From assembly GCA_016867265.1 (NCBI GenBank), contig VGJW01000007.1, positions 1-64,000 of the forward strand: 64,000 bases of DNA, written 5' to 3'. The notes under the pieces were generated by a model, which was not told where the DNA came from, searched no databases, and worked only from the letters and a program-made list of their open reading frames with translations. Position 1 is the first letter of the stretch, and each line of letters starts with the position of its first letter. Shown here piece after piece: positions 31,550 to 40,549 of the stretch. The stretch comes from Candidatus Tanganyikabacteria bacterium. Lineage in GTDB: Bacteria > Cyanobacteriota > Sericytochromatia > S15B-MN24 > VGJW01. The position numbers were made by a program, and so were the translations under genes.

Positions 31550-32446
31550 ATGAGTCAGACACCGAGAGGATCCGACGCCGTGCGCCAATCCCGTTTCGTC
31601 CTCAACCTGCTGCTCGCAGGTGCCGTCCTGGCCTCGGTGTCCGCTTGCGGCACCCAGCCTACGCTGCGGCCCGCATCCCAGTCAGCGGCCCCGATGGCCC
31701 GCATGGTCAAAGTGCGCGGCCTGCCCACCGACTACTACAAGGGCACCGAAGGCCTTACGGGCATGCCCTTGGTGCAGGCACTCAACGGTGCCGTCGCCAA
31801 GCATACGGACCTGGGTTACGACACCGCCCGCGACCACCTGTTCGCCGACGTCGCCGACACGAACGATGACAACATCGTCGAAGACATCTACACCGGCGAG
31901 GCCTTTACCGGCGTCCGTGACCGGGGAACGGCTTCCAAGCACAATCTCAACACCGAACACACGTGGCCACAGAGTTTGGGCGCCAAGGGTGCGGCGAGGT
32001 CCGATCTCCATCACCTCCAGTCCTCGGATGCCGGCATCAATGGTAGCCGTGGGTCTTTCGCCTTCGGGACGGTTGCAGGGTCACCCACGTTCCAGTTCCC
32101 TGCGATAGACGGCAAGACGTGCATCGGCGAGGATGCCCGTGGAAACACGGTCTGCGAACCGCGCCCGAGTGTCCGGGGCGACATCGCCCGGGGCCTGCTG
32201 TACTTCTACGTGGTTTATGGGGGCTACGACTCGACCTCGCTCAAGAACTTCGTCAACGAAGTCCGGACGCTCGTTGCGTGGCACGATATGGATCCCGTGG
32301 ATGCCGCCGAACGCGAGCGGAACGAAAGGGTCTGGCAGGTACAGGGCAACCGCAACCCGTTCATCGACGAGCCGTCCTTCGTGGCGCGCGCAGCCTTCAA
32401 CCGGATGGACCTGAGCCGCCCCAGCCGCCCCAGCCGCCCCCGCTGA
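31550..32446 (+). CDS. Lipid-anchored endonuclease I family nuclease
   Basis: The protein is 298 residues. The signal ends in VLASVSAC, a lipobox. The start could be ATG 31550 (GAGG at 4 nt) or GTG 31580 (GAGAGGA at 9 nt), which gives a more usual signal length. The nuclease domain of the EndA/NucM type (PF04231) shows NTEHTWPQS (His-Me core), SDLHHLQSSDAGINGSRG, RGDIARGLLYFYV and QGNRNPFIDEP. These enzymes cut DNA and RNA with magnesium. Surface or periplasmic placement suggests nutrient scavenging. The C terminus is a short Pro/Ser/Arg repeat. Confidence 0.92.
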   Translation: MSQTPRGSDAVRQSRFVLNLLLAGAVLASVSACGTQPTLRPASQSAAPMARMVKVRGLPTDYYKGTEGLTGMPLVQALNGAVAKHTDLGYDTARDHLFADVADTNDDNIVEDIYTGEAFTGVRDRGTASKHNLNTEHTWPQSLGAKGAARSDLHHLQSSDAGINGSRGSFAFGTVAGSPTFQFPAIDGKTCIGEDARGNTVCEPRPSVRGDIARGLLYFYVVYGGYDSTSLKNFVNEVRTLVAWHDMDPVDAAERERNERVWQVQGNRNPFIDEPSFVARAAFNRMDLSRPSRPSRPR

Positions 32447-33202: not shown

Positions 33203-35566
33203 ATGCTCGGCTTTGGCGCACGGACGCTCTCGGCCCTCGACTGGGACGCGCTCAGGGCCTGTCTCGCCGCGGAGACGGAGGGCGTGGCCGCAGGACGCGA
33301 GGCACTGACCGTGACACCGAGCGCGGATGCAGCCGAGGTGGCGTGGCTGCTGGACCTGACGGAAGCCCTGGATGAGGCCCTCGAAGGCGCCCGCGCGGCT
33401 ACGGGCGACCTGGACGAGCCCGACCTGCTGATTCGCCGGACCGAGCAAGGGGGCAGCCTGTCCGGGCAGGAGCTTCGCCAGATGGCGCGCTGGGCAGGCC
33501 TCGCCGAGGCTTGGCAAGCGCGCACGCGCCGCTTTGCCCGCCTTGGCGCCGTCCTCGCCGCACGGTCCTTGTTCTGGCCGGACGTCGCCCGGGTCAGGCA
33601 GATCATCGAAGCCGTCATCGCCGAGGACGGAACCCTCGAGGATGGCGCATCCCCGGAACTGGGACCGATGCGCCGCGAAGCCCTCGAGGCAGGCAGAGCC
33701 GCCCGCCGCAAGGCCGAGGGGCTGGCCCGCCGCCATGCCGAGGCACTCGGCGAAGACCATGTGCTTCTGCGGCACGAGCGATGGGTCCTGCCCATCCGGG
33801 CAGATCGACGTGGCGAGGTGCCCGGGTTGGTGATCGACCGCTCCATGAGCGGCAGGACCCTGCACATCGAACCGCCCGACCTCCTCGAGGCCAACGAGTG
33901 GTGGGCGGCTGCCGACGCCGCGGTCAGGCGCGAGGAGGCTCGCATCCTCGAGGCGCTATGCCGCGAAGTGGGACGCTACGGCACGGCGCTGCGCGAGGCG
34001 ACGACCCTGTTGATCCGGATGGATCTGGCCCAGGCGCGCGTGCGATTGGGCTGGCGCTGGCAAGGACGTCGGCCCGATGTCGGGGACGCGCCAGAGCTGC
34101 GGGATGCGCGACACGCCCTGCTCTGGCTTCGGCTCGAGGAAGCGGCGGTCCCCATCGACCTCCACCTGGGCACCGGGGGCCTGCTGATCACGGGACCCAA
34201 CACCGGCGGCAAGACGGCAGCCCTCAAGACCTTGGGCACGACGGTACTCCTGCACCAGTCCGGCATCCTGCCACCAGTGGGTCCGGGCACGCGACTGCCC
34301 CACCTCACGGGCCTGCACGCGGAGATCGGCGACCCGCAATCCCTCGATGGCGACCTGTCGACCTTCAGCGGCCACGTCAAGGCCCTTTCCCGGCTGTTGC
34401 CCGACCTGCGGCCCGGCCACCTCGTCCTGCTGGACGAGGTCGGATCGGGTACGGACCCGGAGGAAGGCGCAGCCCTTGCCCGCGCCATTCTGGAGGCCGT
34501 GCTCGACTCAGGCGCCTGGGTCGTGGCCACCACGCATCTGGGCCAACTCAAGACCTTGCCCTTCGAGGACAATCGGCTCGGGCTGGCCACGACGCGATTC
34601 GACCTGGACCGCATGGAGCCGCGCTACCGGCTCTCCCATGGACAACCCGGAGCCTCGCTCGGCATCGCCGTGGCCGGTCGCCTCGGGCTGCCCGCCCACG
34701 TGCTGGGTCGGGCCCGGGCGTTGCATGATGCGCGGCAGGACACCAAGGATCGCCTTGTTGCGGAGCTCGACCGGGCGCGCGCCGAGGCCGAGGACCACGG
34801 TCGGGCCCTCGCGGCCTCGCGCCAGAAGGCCGAGGCCCTGCAGACGGAGCTGGAGACGCGACTCGCGGGCTGGCGCCAGGAGGAACGGGACCTCCGGCGC
34901 AAGGCGCGTGCCTCGCTCGATACGGAATTGGACGAGGCGAGAAGCCAGGTCCGGGAAGCCATCGCCATCCTGAAGGGCAGGCCTACCGGCGCCCAGATCC
35001 AGCAAGCCAAGGAACGCCTCGAGGCCTCGGCACGGGGACGACTCGCCCCACCCCAGCCTCCTCCCGCGGTAACCCCGCTCGAGACCGGCCAGCCCGTCTG
35101 GTTGGTCCGCCTCGAGCGCTGGGGCACGGTGGCGCGTGCTCCCGACGAACGCGGCCTGCTTCAGGCGGACGTAGGCGGACTCAAGCTGACGGTTCGCCTG
35201 TCCGAGGTCGCCTCGGGTCCGGAGAAGGGAGTGCGCCCCCCTGCAGTCTTGCCCAAGGCGCCTCCGCCATCGCAGCGGAAGCGGACCGGCGGGCCCATCG
35301 AGGCGTGGGATCCCCCACACGCTGCCCGAACGGTCGATCTACGCGGCAAACAGGTCCTCGAGGCCCTGCCCGCGCTGGAGCGTTGGCTGGCCGCCGCCTG
35401 GCTCGCCGGACACGAGACCGGGGTCGTCATCCACGGCCACGGCACGGGCGCCCTGCTGCAGGCGGTCCGGCAGCACCTCGACGGCCAACCCGGAGTCGCA
35501 GGATGGCGCCCGGGCCAGTCCGGAGAGGGAGGTGACGGGGTGACGATCGTCACGTTCTTGTCATGA
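33203..35566 (+). CDS. mutS2: Endonuclease MutS2
   Basis: The protein is 787 residues. The N-terminal lever/core region includes RWVLPIRADRRGEVPGLVIDRSMSG. The ATPase has the Walker A motif GPNTGGKTAALKT, Walker B VLLDEVGSGTDPEEGAAL and the ABC-like THLGQLKTL. A coiled coil (about 510-610) follows, and the C-terminal Smr domain starts at TVDLRG and has VIHGHGTGALLQAVR. MutS2 acts on recombination intermediates or collided ribosomes, not on mismatches. The Smr loop reads GHGTG where GKGTG is more usual. Confidence 0.95.
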   Translation: MLGFGARTLSALDWDALRACLAAETEGVAAGREALTVTPSADAAEVAWLLDLTEALDEALEGARAATGDLDEPDLLIRRTEQGGSLSGQELRQMARWAGLAEAWQARTRRFARLGAVLAARSLFWPDVARVRQIIEAVIAEDGTLEDGASPELGPMRREALEAGRAARRKAEGLARRHAEALGEDHVLLRHERWVLPIRADRRGEVPGLVIDRSMSGRTLHIEPPDLLEANEWWAAADAAVRREEARILEALCREVGRYGTALREATTLLIRMDLAQARVRLGWRWQGRRPDVGDAPELRDARHALLWLRLEEAAVPIDLHLGTGGLLITGPNTGGKTAALKTLGTTVLLHQSGILPPVGPGTRLPHLTGLHAEIGDPQSLDGDLSTFSGHVKALSRLLPDLRPGHLVLLDEVGSGTDPEEGAALARAILEAVLDSGAWVVATTHLGQLKTLPFEDNRLGLATTRFDLDRMEPRYRLSHGQPGASLGIAVAGRLGLPAHVLGRARALHDARQDTKDRLVAELDRARAEAEDHGRALAASRQKAEALQTELETRLAGWRQEERDLRRKARASLDTELDEARSQVREAIAILKGRPTGAQIQQAKERLEASARGRLAPPQPPPAVTPLETGQPVWLVRLERWGTVARAPDERGLLQADVGGLKLTVRLSEVASGPEKGVRPPAVLPKAPPPSQRKRTGGPIEAWDPPHAARTVDLRGKQVLEALPALERWLAAAWLAGHETGVVIHGHGTGALLQAVRQHLDGQPGVAGWRPGQSGEGGDGVTIVTFLS

Positions 35567-35602: not shown

Positions 35603-35631
35603 TTGACGCCTCCATCAAATCAAAGTTAAAT
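35603..35631 (+). promoter_or_regulatory. Sigma-70-type promoter of the recombinase-like gene
   Basis: TTGACG (35603-35608) and TTAAAT (35626-35631) are separated by exactly 17 bp, in the AT-richest stretch of the window. The predicted start lies near 35638, leaving a leader of about 120 nt. Confidence 0.5.
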
Positions 35632-35644
35632 TCATCTTACTTGC

Positions 35645-35705
35645 TTCTTAAGTGCGCCTTAACGTCTATCTGACATAGTAGTTGCATTGGTGTTTCTTAA
35701 GAAAC
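35645..35705 (+). promoter_or_regulatory. Paired CTTAAG operator-like sites
   Basis: TTCTTAAG occurs at 35645-35652 and again at 35694-35701, 49 bp apart. The second lies in a perfect 14-bp palindrome GTTTCTTAAGAAAC (35692-35705). Both are downstream of the predicted promoter and before the gene, a natural position for a repressor or autoregulator. Confidence 0.45.
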
Positions 35706-35761: not shown

Positions 35762-36550
35762 ATGAATCACACCTTCCACGGTTACGTCTGGCTCAGCCCT
35801 GAGGATGCCTCGCGCCCCGAGCGCGTCACGGCAGCCCGCAGCACCCTCGAGGCCTACTGCGATGCAAACGGCCTCAAGCTGACGGACGTTCACATCGAGA
35901 CCGGCCACTTCGGGTCGGCGCTCGAACGCCCCATCCTCGGCAGCCTCATCGCCGAACCCAATACCGTTCTCGTGATGCCCAGCCTGAACAGCCTCGGTCG
36001 GCGCTTCCACGATGTCGCCACGGTCCTCTCAGAGTTCGCCCATCGCGAAGTGCGCCTCGTGTCCATCGCCGAAGGTGTCGACACGAGCAAGCCGGAAGGC
36101 ATGCAGCTGATCCGGGTCCTCGTCCGCATTCCCCAGGTGGCGGGCTGGATCAAGCCCATCAAGGCCCCCGCGACCTCCAAGGTCTACGTTCGGGCCCGCG
36201 AGGTGCTGCACAACGGCGGCACCTGCCCCTTCGGCTACACCCTCGACGAGAGCACCAACCAGTTCGTCATCAACGAACGGGAAGCCCCCGTGGTCCAACG
36301 CATCTTCCGCGAGCGTTCCGCCGGTCGTAGCCTGCGCCAGATCGCCGGCGACCTGAGCCGGGACGGTATAGCGACCAAGCGTGGCGGACGCTGGCAGGCC
36401 AACACCGTCAAGACCATCCTCGAGAACATCTTCTACACCGGCGACTACCAGTGCCAGAGCAAGGTCTTCGAGCGTGACCACGAAGCCATCATCGCGAAGG
36501 AACTCTTCACCGAGGTCAACAACGGCAAGGCCGTACTACAGGTCATCTGA
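35762..36550 (+). CDS. Serine-recombinase relative with degenerate catalytic site
   Basis: The protein is 262 residues from ATG 35762 (AGGAG at 8 nt). The N-terminal resolvase fold (about 5-120) is followed by a 'Recombinase' DNA-binding domain (about 148-235), with CPFGYTLDESTNQFVINE to NTVKTILENIFYTGDY. Key residues of the family are altered. The YxRxS motif is YVWLS, keeping Ser but losing Arg. The DRLxR motif is NSLGR. The ExxRI..R segment is AGWIKPIK. The zinc and coiled-coil region of large serine recombinases is missing (262 against about 500 residues). It probably binds DNA without recombining it. No attachment site or prophage genes are nearby. Confidence 0.85.
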   Translation: MNHTFHGYVWLSPEDASRPERVTAARSTLEAYCDANGLKLTDVHIETGHFGSALERPILGSLIAEPNTVLVMPSLNSLGRRFHDVATVLSEFAHREVRLVSIAEGVDTSKPEGMQLIRVLVRIPQVAGWIKPIKAPATSKVYVRAREVLHNGGTCPFGYTLDESTNQFVINEREAPVVQRIFRERSAGRSLRQIAGDLSRDGIATKRGGRWQANTVKTILENIFYTGDYQCQSKVFERDHEAIIAKELFTEVNNGKAVLQVI

Positions 36551-36617: not shown

Positions 36618-37181
36618 CTAGAGCAAGGGCGTTATAGCCTTGTTGAAGTTGGCCAGGATCTCGTCGTGTTCCTCGCCAGGCGGCCCGATCCACTTCTGGC
36701 GAATCACGCCCTTGCGGTCGATGAGGAAGGTCGTCGGAATGCCCCGGATGCCTCCGAAGCCACGCGCGAGGTCCTCGGAACCCACGAGCAGGGGGTAGTT
36801 GAACCGGGTACCCTGCCGCTCGACAAACTCCCTCGCAAAGATCGGCACGGCTATCTTGGGCTCGTCATCAAGCGACACACCGAGCACCGTGAAGCCCTTG
36901 CCTTTGAGTTCCCGCTGCAGGCGGATCAGATCGGGGATTTCATGCCGACAGGGCGGGCACCACGTCGCCCAGAAGTTCAAGAGGATGACCTTGCCCTTCA
37001 GGGAAACCAGGCTGACGCGCTTGGGCGACGCCTTGCCTTCGATGGGAATCACCGTCAAGTCGAAGGCCGGGGCCTGCTTGTCCGCCGACAGGGCGGGTTG
37101 GGCAGAGAACACGGGCAGCAGAGCCGCGCCAAGCAGAAGCGGCAACAGGCGCGGCAGCAGACGCGGACACATCGCCATCAC
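36618..37181 (-). CDS. TlpA/ResA-like thiol-disulfide oxidoreductase
   Basis: The protein is 187 residues. The signal peptide (about 1-32) ends PALSA. The mature thioredoxin fold has the active site FWATWCPPC and cis-Pro in GIPTTFLIDRKG, and an inserted strand-helix as in ResA/TlpA. Such proteins reduce disulfides in the periplasm, for example during cytochrome c maturation. Its start overlaps the stop of the FHA gene by 4 nt, so it shares an operon with the signalling genes upstream. Confidence 0.92.
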   Translation of the reverse strand: MMAMCPRLLPRLLPLLLGAALLPVFSAQPALSADKQAPAFDLTVIPIEGKASPKRVSLVSLKGKVILLNFWATWCPPCRHEIPDLIRLQRELKGKGFTVLGVSLDDEPKIAVPIFAREFVERQGTRFNYPLLVGSEDLARGFGGIRGIPTTFLIDRKGVIRQKWIGPPGEEHDEILANFNKAITPLL

Positions 37182-37564
37182 GCCGGGTCCAGGATGAACG
37201 TGCAGAAGGTCTTGCCCAAGAGAACCTCATCCCCGTCCTTGATGCCCACAGGTTGTCCGGGCAGGAGCCGCGCGCCACGGTTGAGGAAGGTGCCATTCAG
37301 CGAGCCCAGGTCTTCCAGGAAGTAGGCTCCCTCCTCCACGAAAAAGCGCGCGTGTTTCCGTGAGATCTTGGCCTCGGGATCGTCCTCCGTCAGGTCGATC
37401 TCGGGGAAGGCCCCCCCGTCGGGATCCCACCGACCCACGTGGGTCTCGCCCTTGCGCTCGAGCGAGAAAGCCTGGTTGACACGACCGCCGCGCTTGACGA
37501 CCAGGCGCCCGGGCGGAGCCATCGAAGCGTTGTCGGTGGACTGGGGCTGTTCGGCAAAAGTCAT
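37178..37564 (-). CDS. FHA-domain protein
   Basis: The protein is 128 residues, essentially one forkhead-associated domain. The motif order is complete: HVGRWDP (GR), then ISRKHARF (SxxH) and EDLGSLNGTFLN (NG). FHA domains bind phosphothreonine peptides. With a kinase and a PP2C phosphatase just upstream on the same strand, it is the natural reader of their signal. It lies 82 bp after the phosphatase gene and overlaps the TlpA-like gene. Confidence 0.95.
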   Translation of the reverse strand: MTFAEQPQSTDNASMAPPGRLVVKRGGRVNQAFSLERKGETHVGRWDPDGGAFPEIDLTEDDPEAKISRKHARFFVEEGAYFLEDLGSLNGTFLNRGARLLPGQPVGIKDGDEVLLGKTFCTFILDPA

Positions 37565-37646
37565 CTGGGTCGTCCTCCGGGAGCCGTGCGTCGCGACGTT
37601 ACCATCCTACCCTCCGGACGACGCCGCGCGTCCAGGGTTCCATAAC

Positions 37647-39293
37647 CTACCGATACTCCGACATCTGCACCAGCACGACGGTGATGTTGTCCTCGCCCCC
37701 GCGCTGGTTTGCGAGGTTGACGAGCCGCTGGGCGGCGACGACGGGATCGATCGCATCGGTGACAATCTGGTGCAACTCGGGGTCGGTCACATGCCCCGTC
37801 AGGCCATCACTGCAAAGCAGCAGCCAGTCACCCGTCCGCAAGGGACGCTGGTACAGGTCGACCTCGACATTGGGGTAGGTCCCCAGCGAGCGGTAGATCA
37901 GATTGCGTTGCGGGTGGACCAGAGCCTCCACAGGCGTGATCTGGCCCAGTTCGACCAAGCGTCCGACAAGGCTATGGTCCCGCGATACCTTCTCAATGCC
38001 CTGCCGGTTGATCAGGTAGCAGCACGAGTCGCCGACATGGGCGACGTAGACAGTGTGACCGAATACCAAGGCCGTGGTGGCCGTGGTCCCCATGCCCTGC
38101 ATCGCGGGATTGGCGCGCCCGGTGTCGTAGACCCGGGCGTTGGCGAGCTTGACTGCTTGCTGCAGATGCAGCTTGACCTGGCTGGACGGATCTTCACCGT
38201 CTCCGAGCGAGGCCAAGGCATTCTGGACATAGCTCGTGACCTCGTCGACCGTGATAGCCGAGGCAATCTCGCCGGCATTCACGCCCCCCATGCCGTCCGC
38301 ACAGATGTAAAGCCCGAGACCGCTGCTCTGGCCTTGCGCCGTGAAGGTCAACTCGAACACGCCAAGGGCGTCCTCATTGCCCGTCCGCAGCATCCCCACG
38401 TCCGAACAGGTGCCGACCCGCCTGATGGGATTCTGGACCAGCTCGTGAATCTCGGCCCGAAGCTCCGCGCAAGACGAGAAGCGATCGAGCGGGTCTATCG
38501 CCACCAGCTTTCGTACGAGTCGTTCGATGTGCGGATGAATCGCGGGCAAGTAATGGCTGACATCGGTGAAGACGAAGCGGTCTTCCTCGTGTTGCCAGAT
38601 TTCCTCCGGACTGACGGTCGTGAGCAGCTGATGCCAGATCGCCCCCAGCGCAAACAGGTCGGACCGCTCGGTCACACGACCTTCGAGAAAACCGAACTGT
38701 TCGGGTGGAGAGTAGCCCGGCGTGGCATCGACCACATTCTGGACCGGCACCATCGTGGCGCGATGGAAGCCCGTCAGGCGCAATTGGCCGCGGTCCGGCG
38801 ACACCACCAGGTACCGGGGCTGCAAATCGAGGTGAAGGATGCCCGACGCGTGGAGCTGCCCCAATGCGTCACAAATCTGGGCCACCCAGTCGATGGTCTG
38901 CTGGACCGGGATGTCCTCGCCACCGGCCAGGAAGTAGGCCAGATCGCGACCCTCGAGTTGCTCGAGCACCAGATAGGCCCGGTCGTCTTCACGAAACAGA
39001 TCCAGAGCCTTGACCACCGCCGTGGAACGCACGGACCGTAGAATCAGAAATTCGTCCTGGAAGGGATGGCCCGCGGCATCCTCGGCCCACTCGCTGTCTG
39101 CCAAGGCTTCAGGGATGGGCCCCGGCTGCACGGCCCCCCGCTCCTTCACGATGACGGGCAGTTCTGTCATCGTGTCGAGCGCCCGGTACAGGTTGGCCTC
39201 GTGCTTGCTCTCGAGGAATCGGTCGATGCGGTAGCGCCCCCTCAGGAGCACGTCGGGCCCCAAGGGCTCCGGCACGTTCCGTGGCGGACTCAC
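37647..39293 (-). CDS. Pseudokinase-PP2C phosphatase fusion
   Basis: The protein is 548 residues from GTG 39293. This GTG overlaps the kinase stop (GTGA) and has GGAGG 6 nt upstream. The N-terminal half (about 15-280) has a protein-kinase fold but lacks catalytic residues. HRD is HLD and lacks KxxN (HLDLQPRYL), DFG is TGF, and the Gly-rich loop is absent. The C-terminal half (about 300-548) is a complete PP2C: TGNEDALGVF, CADGMGG, AHVGDSCCYL, CSDGLTGHV and GGEDNITVV. It should dephosphorylate Ser/Thr proteins. The pseudokinase part may sense a ligand or hold the partner kinase. Confidence 0.92.
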   Translation of the reverse strand: MSPPRNVPEPLGPDVLLRGRYRIDRFLESKHEANLYRALDTMTELPVIVKERGAVQPGPIPEALADSEWAEDAAGHPFQDEFLILRSVRSTAVVKALDLFREDDRAYLVLEQLEGRDLAYFLAGGEDIPVQQTIDWVAQICDALGQLHASGILHLDLQPRYLVVSPDRGQLRLTGFHRATMVPVQNVVDATPGYSPPEQFGFLEGRVTERSDLFALGAIWHQLLTTVSPEEIWQHEEDRFVFTDVSHYLPAIHPHIERLVRKLVAIDPLDRFSSCAELRAEIHELVQNPIRRVGTCSDVGMLRTGNEDALGVFELTFTAQGQSSGLGLYICADGMGGVNAGEIASAITVDEVTSYVQNALASLGDGEDPSSQVKLHLQQAVKLANARVYDTGRANPAMQGMGTTATTALVFGHTVYVAHVGDSCCYLINRQGIEKVSRDHSLVGRLVELGQITPVEALVHPQRNLIYRSLGTYPNVEVDLYQRPLRTGDWLLLCSDGLTGHVTDPELHQIVTDAIDPVVAAQRLVNLANQRGGEDNITVVLVQMSEYR

Positions 39294-40549
39294 GCCGCAC
39301 CTCCCCGCATGAACAGCCACATGAGCAAGGCACCCAGGGCCATCGACACGGGCACCAAGCTGGCCACGAACCAAGGCTGCTGCCAGACCGCGCCGCCGTG
39401 CCGGCCATCCAGGCCATCGGCAAGGGAAGGATCGAGGTTGCGCGCCGTAAGGGCCTTGGCGTGGATCTTGTCGTAGGTCGACGTGTGGTGAGCGGCTATG
39501 TAGCCCTTGCAGCTGGGGCAGAACTGACGCCCCCGCGAGATGCGGACCCCGCAGTGGGGACAGTTCCGAACGGCCCCTGTCTCGTGGCCGCCAAGCAGGA
39601 TGAGTTCGGCGAGCAGCTCGTCACATGTCTGGTAGCGACGTTCGAGCTCGGGCTCCAGCATCTTGGTGATGATGCTCTCCAGAGCCTCGCTGACCTCGTT
39701 GTTCAGCTGACGCACCGGCGGAAAACTGAAGGGCGCCTCGTTCTGCGGGTCACGATTGGTAAGCAGGTAGTGCATCGTGGCACCCAGCGCATAGATGTCG
39801 GTCCGTTGCTCGACCTGACCGCGGTACTGCTCGGGGGGCGCGTAGCCTTGCGTGCCAATCATCGTGCCGCGCGCCTGCGGATTGAAGAATCGAGCGATGC
39901 CGAAGTCGACGAGGTAAATCTTGCCGAAGTGGGTGAGTATCAAGTTGGCCGGTTTCATATCCCGGTAGATGATGGGCGGCTTCTGGTGGTGCAGGTAGGA
40001 CAGCACGTCGCAGCACTGGATCGCCCAGCCAATCACGCTCTTCTCATCGAAGGGGGCCATGCTCTCGTGCATCCGTTGCTCGAGATCCGTGCCCTGGATG
40101 TACTCCATCACCAGGTAATGGCGATTGGCCTCAGTGAAGCGGTCGTAGACCTCGGGGATCGCGTTGTGATCGAGGTTGGCCAGCAGATCGGCCTCACGAT
40201 AGAAATTTTGCGTCGCAATCTCGCGCTGCTCGGGGTCCGTGAAGTGGTCCAGCATCTCCTTGACGATGCAGACCTTGGAACTGAAGCGCGTGTCATTGGC
40301 CAGGTAGATGGCACCCATGCCACCCTGACCCACCAGTTGGGTGATGCGGTACCGCTCCTGCAGAAGCGTCGAGGGGGCAAGAAGGGTGCTGGGCGGCGCA
40401 TACCCCGAGGCCGGTTGCGTCACGGCACCCATGGGCTGGACCGTCACCGCCGCTTTGAGGGGCTTGCCGCAGTCGCAGCAGAACCGGTTTTCCTCGTCGT
40501 TCGGCGTATGGCAGGAAGGGCAGTTTATCTGAGGCACGAGCTCTGGCAC
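39290..40549 (-). CDS. Membrane-anchored Ser/Thr protein kinase with zinc ribbons
   Basis: The protein is 419 residues. An N-terminal zinc ribbon (C10, C13, C24/25, C27) is followed by the kinase domain (about 67-320). The kinase motifs are GQGGMGAIYLA, the Lys in CIVKEM, YRDMKPANL (HRD-type), VDFGIARFF and GTQGYAPPEQY. A second zinc ribbon (CPHCGVRISRGRQFCPSCKG) and one membrane helix near the C terminus (about 392-413) complete it. All catalytic residues are present. The downstream pseudokinase-phosphatase starts within its stop codon, so the two are made together. Confidence 0.94.
   Translation of the reverse strand: MPELVPQINCPSCHTPNDEENRFCCDCGKPLKAAVTVQPMGAVTQPASGYAPPSTLLAPSTLLQERYRITQLVGQGGMGAIYLANDTRFSSKVCIVKEMLDHFTDPEQREIATQNFYREADLLANLDHNAIPEVYDRFTEANRHYLVMEYIQGTDLEQRMHESMAPFDEKSVIGWAIQCCDVLSYLHHQKPPIIYRDMKPANLILTHFGKIYLVDFGIARFFNPQARGTMIGTQGYAPPEQYRGQVEQRTDIYALGATMHYLLTNRDPQNEAPFSFPPVRQLNNEVSEALESIITKMLEPELERRYQTCDELLAELILLGGHETGAVRNCPHCGVRISRGRQFCPSCKGYIAAHHTSTYDKIHAKALTARNLDPSLADGLDGRHGGAVWQQPWFVASLVPVSMALGALLMWLFMRGGAA

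What the first reader, a model, noticed from the sequence alone, without database searches (positions are those of the whole stretch)
35762..36550. Serine recombinase relative that has lost catalytic residues
The nucleophile Ser of the YxRxS motif remains. The Arg of that motif is Trp, the first Arg of DRLxR is Ser, the Asp is Asn, and the ExxR segment is replaced by AGWIKPIK. The DNA-binding 'Recombinase' domain is intact, and the C-terminal part of large recombinases is absent. With its own promoter and no att site or prophage, it looks like a domesticated DNA-binding regulator.
Basis: partly seen in the sequence, partly recalled or inferred. Interest (0 to 1): 0.66.

Follow-up and report, generated by a model that had tools for sequence, protein, structure and literature searches.

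The report
Dead recombinase kept as DNA-binding protein
A gene that once cut and rejoined DNA has lost its cutting chemistry but has been kept, one copy per genome, across a whole class of non-photosynthetic relatives of cyanobacteria, with its DNA-gripping half hardly changed, so it probably now works as a regulator or organiser of DNA.

Summary
The 262-aa protein at 35762-36550 is a resolvase-fold domain plus a 'Recombinase' DNA-binding domain. Orthologues occur in 15 of 18 genomes of its class (9 of 9 of good quality), one each, and in 0 of 368 other genomes of the phylum. The class is inferred to be Sericytochromatia from matching public contigs.

All 15 carry Trp for the active-site Arg, lack the DRLxR Asp, lack the helix-E Glu-Arg pair, and carry an invariant Ile-Pro-Gln there. 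The copies form one clade (100/100) that follows taxonomy. dN/dS is 0.05-0.34. The DNA-binding domain is more conserved (0.71 mean column identity) than in active relatives (0.35). This is a vertically inherited pseudo-recombinase, not a decaying integrase.

In 12 of 14 readable genomes it lies behind an element of 11-bp-spaced YTTAAC units, CAAG and CGATA, which recurs class-wide before pilin, lipoprotein and secreted-protease genes.

Most likely it is a non-catalytic DNA-binding regulator or architectural protein. Target DNA and function are inferred, not shown.

The parts
35762..36550 (+). gene for the catalytically dead serine-recombinase relative (262 aa)
   Evidence: orthologues; alignment
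35762..36127 (+). resolvase-fold N-terminal domain (residues 1-122) with W10, S12, P13, R56, N76, S77, R80
   Evidence: Pfam; residue table; model; structure matches
36128..36211 (+). altered helix E / linker (residues 123-150), invariant IPQ at 123-125, pLDDT under 50 at 124-139
36212..36529 (+). 'Recombinase' DNA-binding domain (residues 151-256), the most conserved part across the class
35625..35668 (+). upstream array of four units in 11-bp register (GTTAA, CTTAC, CTTAA, CTTAAC)
   Evidence: pattern hit at 35648-35663
35674..35678 (+). CATAG at the place where relatives have the -35-like CAAG (16 nt after the start of the last unit)
33203..35566 (+). mutS2 (MutS domain V + Smr), upstream neighbour in seven genomes of three families

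Best explanation
A serine recombinase of the short large-recombinase type (resolvase domain plus RD) was captured before the last common ancestor of the sampled members of this class, lost its strand-exchange chemistry, and was kept as a non-catalytic DNA-binding protein. Shown here: loss of catalytic residues in all orthologues, one vertical clade, purifying selection, a conserved DNA-binding domain, and membership of a class-wide promoter set. Inferred: the RD still grips DNA; the resolvase-fold domain now serves folding or dimer contact through changed surfaces (invariant W10, P13, F82, IPQ); and the protein acts as a regulator or local DNA organiser, itself switched on together with surface and secreted proteins.
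For: 15 of 18 class genomes carry it, 9 of 9 with at least 90% completeness and at most 5% contamination, one copy each; 0 of 368 other genomes of the phylum at E 1e-30. W10 15/15, Asp76 0/15, Arg77 1/15, Ser12 4/15, helix-E Glu-Arg pair 0/15, new invariant IPQ 15/15, against R10, S12, D76, R77, R80 in 16/16 and Glu-Arg in 15/16 active relatives. One clade, 100/100, inner order follows families. dN/dS 0.054 (dS 0.35) for the closest pair and 0.19-0.34 for five others; RD mean column identity 0.71 against 0.35 in active relatives, N-domain 0.41 against 0.42. RD of the model fits large-serine-recombinase RDs (9iu9 Z 13.4, rmsd 2.3 over 110; 4kis Z 11.9, rmsd 2.7 over 107). Upstream element in 12 of 14 readable genomes, recurring class-wide 150 times against 23 for the reversed pattern in 16 genomes without family f6.
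Against: No DNA target was found and none could be tested. In a published integrase structure the RD contacts only 3 bp directly in the major groove (PMC3783163, passages read), so alone it may lack the specificity of a regulator. pTM is 0.46 and domain arrangement is not predicted. Three class genomes lack a detectable copy (64, 74 and 87% complete), two of them one family (f6), so it is dispensable or lost there. The element was found by eye from these same promoters, and the window copy matches the CAAG/GATA half poorly (4 mismatches of 16; 11 of 1000 shuffles as good).
Confidence: 0.66

Rival explanations
1. Architectural (nucleoid-type) protein of low sequence specificity rather than a gene-specific regulator: the RD coats or bends AT-rich DNA and the altered N-domain joins copies.
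For: RD without zinc domain; published RD contacts only 3 bp in the major groove, A-T pairs (PMC3783163); single monocistronic-looking gene with no conserved operon across families.
Against: The RD is more conserved than expected for unspecific binding (0.71 against 0.35 column identity); co-placement in a specific promoter set suggests a defined programme.
Confidence: 0.22
2. Dominant-negative or decoy partner that blocks active serine recombinases of mobile elements by mixed dimers or by occupying their sites.
For: Active short recombinases of the same type occur in genomes G002-G004, some beside terminase-like genes; the N-domain fold is kept.
Against: In 11 of the 15 carrier genomes no second relative was found at E 1e-10, so no partner of this type is needed; helix E, the usual partner interface (recalled), is altered in all copies.
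Confidence: 0.07
3. Still an active recombinase using an unusual active site.
For: R56 kept 15/15, R80 kept 14/15, Ser kept in the window copy.
Against: Nucleophile lost in 11 of 15, R10 in 15 of 15, D76 in 15 of 15, Glu-Arg pair in 15 of 15; no mobile element recognised nearby.
Confidence: 0.02
4. Decaying pseudogene of an old integrase.
For: Catalytic residues lost.
Against: No stop inside any of the 14 full-length frames, dN/dS well under 1, same neighbour in seven genomes, one copy in every good-quality genome.
Confidence: 0.01

Closest known systems
Large serine recombinases (SPbeta integrase 9dxh, Bxb1 9iu2, Listeria LI integrase 4kis)
   Same: Resolvase-fold N-domain followed by RD; best sequence and fold matches
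   Different: Catalytic residues lost, helix E changed to IPQ, no zinc-ribbon or coiled-coil; vertical, one per genome, not in an element
Short resolvase-plus-RD recombinases of the same class and of Picosynechococcus plasmids
   Same: Same domain order and similar length (about 230-270 aa); 30-35% identity
   Different: Those have YxRVS, DRLxR and WERE.I.ERT intact; they lie outside the dead clade
Transposon resolvases that also repress transcription (recalled: Tn3 TnpR)
   Same: Resolvase fold used for regulation
   Different: TnpR is still an active recombinase and binds through a different C-terminal helix-turn-helix (recalled)
Cyanobacterial Pho box (SphR: tandem CTTAACCT with 3-bp linkers, PMC1906773)
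   Same: 11-bp register of CTTAAC-like units in front of the gene
   Different: PstS model TIGR02136 absent from 10 of 10 order genomes; followed by CAAG and CGATA rather than a plain -10

Membership tests
Serine recombinase superfamily (fold) | Resolvase N-terminal domain | tested here: met
   Pfam PF00239 E 1.4e-12; TP901-1 N-domain Z 14.6 rmsd 3.2 over 121
Serine recombinase superfamily (enzyme) | Nucleophilic Ser with Arg two before it | tested here: not met
   Arg absent 15/15; Ser absent 11/15, present in the window copy
Serine recombinase superfamily (enzyme) | DRLxR motif | tested here: not met
   Asp absent 15/15, first Arg absent 14/15, last Arg kept 14/15
Serine recombinase superfamily (enzyme) | Long helix E with Glu-Arg at the active site | tested here: not met
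   Glu-Arg pair absent 15/15 (a lone Arg in G007); IPQ 15/15; low-confidence stretch 124-139 in the model. The control model of active relatives has a helix at 135-154 but is itself low confidence
Large serine recombinases | Recombinase domain (RD) | tested here: met
   PF07508 E 5.6e-20; RD fit to 4kis, Bxb1 and PhiC31
Large serine recombinases | Zinc-ribbon domain with coiled coil | tested here: not met
   No such family reported by Pfam at E 1; protein ends at residue 262
Large serine recombinases | Lies in a mobile element, with att sites | tested here: not met
   Chromosomal neighbours; no relative above about 33% identity in phage or plasmid records; att sites were not sought directly
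Transcription regulator | Binds specific DNA and changes transcription | not testable with these tools
   Only the conserved RD supports it
Pho regulon (promoter) | Tandem CTTAAC-type units in 11-bp register | tested here: met
   motif described in PMC1906773
Pho regulon (promoter) | Shared with pst/phosphate genes | tested here: inconclusive
   TIGR02136 PstS 0 of 10 order genomes; other phosphate genes not sought
Sigma-28 type promoter | -35 TAAA and -10 GCCGATAA (recalled) | tested here: inconclusive
   CGATA at +21 from CAAG in 13 of 52 sites, GATA at +22 in 20 of 52; -35 differs; element also seen in G012, which lacks FliA over the cut-off

The most novel reading that the evidence does not exclude
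A class-defining pseudo-recombinase: an integrase-type protein exapted at the root of the Sericytochromatia into a sequence-specific regulator that sits one tier below a two-component regulator and alternative-sigma programme for surface proteins (Flp pilin, lipoproteins, secreted subtilases), the first vertically inherited catalytically dead serine recombinase used as a core regulator.
Probability: 0.3. Interest if true: 0.76.

Novelty: new variant of a known kind. Interest (0 to 1): 0.6.

Why it matters
Recruited mobile-element proteins that keep recombining DNA are well known. A review of such recruitment (PMC8987985, passages shown) names serine invertases and resolvases, and helix-turn-helix regulators, in the passages I saw, not a dead serine recombinase. 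A dead one kept one per genome at the base of the cyanobacterial phylum, with the DNA-binding half held constant, gives a clean case of an integrase becoming a DNA-binding protein, and a natural test of what an RD alone can recognise. It also opens what looks like an undescribed promoter programme in an almost unstudied class.

Tried and rejected
Rejected: sequencing error (same losses in 15 assemblies); pseudogene; integrase of a prophage; member of NCBIfam CcrA/B/C (best scores 67 bits or less against cut-offs of 700-900). PHROG integrase family match E 7.2e-38 reflects shared ancestry only.

Led nowhere: scan of viral contigs with the 14-row alignment gave no relative. Classical phosphate regulon as explanation of the array: no PstS hit. 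Second structure model (active relatives) was too uncertain (mean pLDDT 65.7) to prove that helix E is shortened in the dead family. Lipoprotein enrichment among array genes: 12 of 29 downstream genes have a lipobox against 6 of 55 window genes (Fisher p 0.002), but 36 of 136 ORFs in the same fetched stretches do too, so the enrichment is not firm. The idea that the dead protein itself binds the array is not excluded; against it, G012 (87% complete, no copy found) still has exact copies of the front of the element.

Literature: eight searches bear on precedent or on this class; one search returned nothing and one search was for the Pho box. From the listings I saw no report of a catalytically dead, vertically inherited serine recombinase and none on recombinases of Sericytochromatia. 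Only open-licence PMC papers are held. Papers read: passages of PMC8987985, PMC1906773 and PMC3783163; everything else listing and start of abstract only.

Limits: the scan of 84,980 species used two peptide patterns only and would miss divergent members; other phyla were not searched with the profile. Catalytic roles of residues, and Tn3 TnpR as a repressor, are recalled knowledge.

Full report
WHAT IS THERE. The ORF at 35762-36550 (+) encodes 262 aa with Pfam Resolvase (E 1.4e-12) and Recombinase (E 5.6e-20) domains and nothing after them. It is the only such gene in its 2.85-Mb genome, which is 98.2% complete.

ORTHOLOGUES. In the same family 3 of 4 other genomes have a 63-65% identical copy. 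In the class 14 of 18 genomes have one full-length copy. A 15th, cut by a contig end, appears at a looser threshold (G017). Among good-quality genomes the count is 9 of 9. The three without are 64, 74 and 87% complete. In the phylum, 14 of 386 genomes match at E 1e-30, all in this class. Public contigs of the same lengths as the unnamed ones carry the names Candidatus Sericytochromatia S15B-MN24 CBMW_12, RYN_339 and UBA8530, so the class is taken to be Sericytochromatia; this is an inference from names and contig lengths.

RESIDUES. On one alignment of 15 orthologues and 16 active relatives: position 10 Trp 15/15 against Arg 16/16; position 12 Ser 4/15 (else Asn 3, His 4, Thr 1, Pro 3) against 16/16; position 76 Asp 0/15 against 16/16; position 77 Arg 1/15 (G005) against 16/16; position 80 Arg 14/15 against 16/16; position 56 Arg 15/15 against 16/16; Glu-Arg at 127-128 0/15 (a lone Arg in G007) against 15/16. 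New invariants are W10, P13, F82 and I-P-Q at 123-125. So the family is dead as a recombinase by every residue rule except two retained arginines, and the window copy's Ser is a leftover, not a sign of activity.

HISTORY. A maximum-likelihood tree of 31 proteins puts the 15 in one clade (100/100) whose inner order follows the genome families: a single vertical lineage. dN/dS is 0.054 for G002-G003 (dS 0.35) and 0.19 to 0.34 for five more distant pairs; one further pair (G014-G015) is saturated. Across copies the RD has mean column identity 0.71, twice the 0.35 of the active set, while the N-domain has 0.41 against 0.42. The active set is more varied in origin, so this comparison shows strong constraint but is not a matched control. 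The gene lies next to mutS2 in seven genomes of families f1, f3 and f4, and elsewhere in f2, f5 and f7. Window neighbours are MutS2, a thioredoxin-like protein, FHA, kinase-phosphatase and kinase genes.

STRUCTURE. AlphaFold2 with the 14-row alignment gives mean pLDDT 81.9 but pTM 0.46: both domains are well formed, residues 124-139 are under 50, and the helix that should run on as helix E stops at 122. Matches are all serine recombinases at the top: SPbeta integrase and Bxb1 over the whole length (large rmsd, domain arrangement not reliable), the TP901-1 N-domain (Z 14.6, 3.2 A over 121), and Bxb1, LI and PhiC31 RDs at 2.2-2.7 A for the best rows (Foldseek). The control model of active relatives has a helix at 135-154 in that place but low confidence, so the broken helix rests mainly on sequence.

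PROMOTER. The 13 upstream regions long enough to read were inspected. In the order, units of YTTAA repeat in exact 11-bp register, followed at 16 nt by CAAG. Searching TTAA-N6-CTTAAC in 10 order genomes gave 122 hits against 13 for the reversed pattern. Among 52 sites from fetched loci chosen by the TTAA/TTAAC/CAAG pattern, an element not searched for appeared at fixed distance: GATA at +22 in 20 and CGATA at +21 in 13. The full composite, up to 2 mismatches, gives 190 hits against 67 reversed in all 18 genomes, and 150 against 23 without the AT-rich family f6, where hits do not exceed the control in G011 and exceed it only modestly in G012. Before the dead gene it is found in 12 of 13 such upstreams with 0-4 mismatches of 16, each matched by at most 11 of 1000 single-base shuffles; G016 fails (641 of 1000), G017, looked at separately, also lacks it, and G007 ends too early to read. 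The window copy is among the weakest: its array is intact but CAAG reads CATAG. Genes behind such elements include, in the window's own genome, a Flp/Fap pilin and two subtilase lipoproteins (the two subtilases have the array but were not scored for the full composite), and elsewhere NHL-repeat lipoproteins and a glycine-rich family without Pfam match. The array looks like the cyanobacterial Pho box (CTTAACCT units with 3-bp linkers; PMC1906773), but PstS (TIGR02136) is absent from 10 of 10 order genomes, so an OmpR/PhoB-type regulator with another signal is more likely. FliA over the cut-off is present in 16 of 18 genomes and missing only in f6, which also lacks the dead gene; this is one clade and thus one event at most.

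MECHANISM. Best reading: non-catalytic DNA-binding regulator or organiser, expressed with surface and secreted proteins. Against a sharp regulator: the RD of LI integrase contacts only 3 bp directly in the major groove (PMC3783163, passages). The specificity, oligomeric state and targets are open. Novelty: the parts are of known kinds; the combination (dead, vertical, class-wide, RD-constrained) was not seen in the listings of the searches named under Tried and rejected.

Noticed in passing
35625-35678 and sites in G000-G017: Class-wide composite promoter element: YTTAAC units in 11-bp register, CAAG 16 nt after the start of the last unit, CGATA 21 nt later; upstream of pilin, lipoprotein, subtilase and glycine-rich protein genes.
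   Followed up: partly
L138, L153, L154, L155, L157, L165, L171 (families f6, f7): Family of glycine-rich small proteins (GGNVAADTVGG...) without Pfam match for the two tested, in clusters, each gene behind the composite element.
   Followed up: partly
G011, G012 (family f6): Both genomes lack FliA over its cut-off and the dead recombinase.
   Followed up: no
order genomes: No PstS (TIGR02136) match in 10 of 10 genomes, though 13 of 14 control genomes have one.
   Followed up: no
L108, L112, L010, L014 (G002, G003): Short active serine recombinases next to terminase-like genes (by eye), probably prophage remnants.
   Followed up: no
37178-40549: FHA, kinase-PP2C and kinase genes downstream, with the same order after the dead recombinase in G008 (family f3).
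   Followed up: partly
31550-32446: Endonuclease I family protein with a lipoprotein-like start, upstream of mutS2.
   Followed up: no
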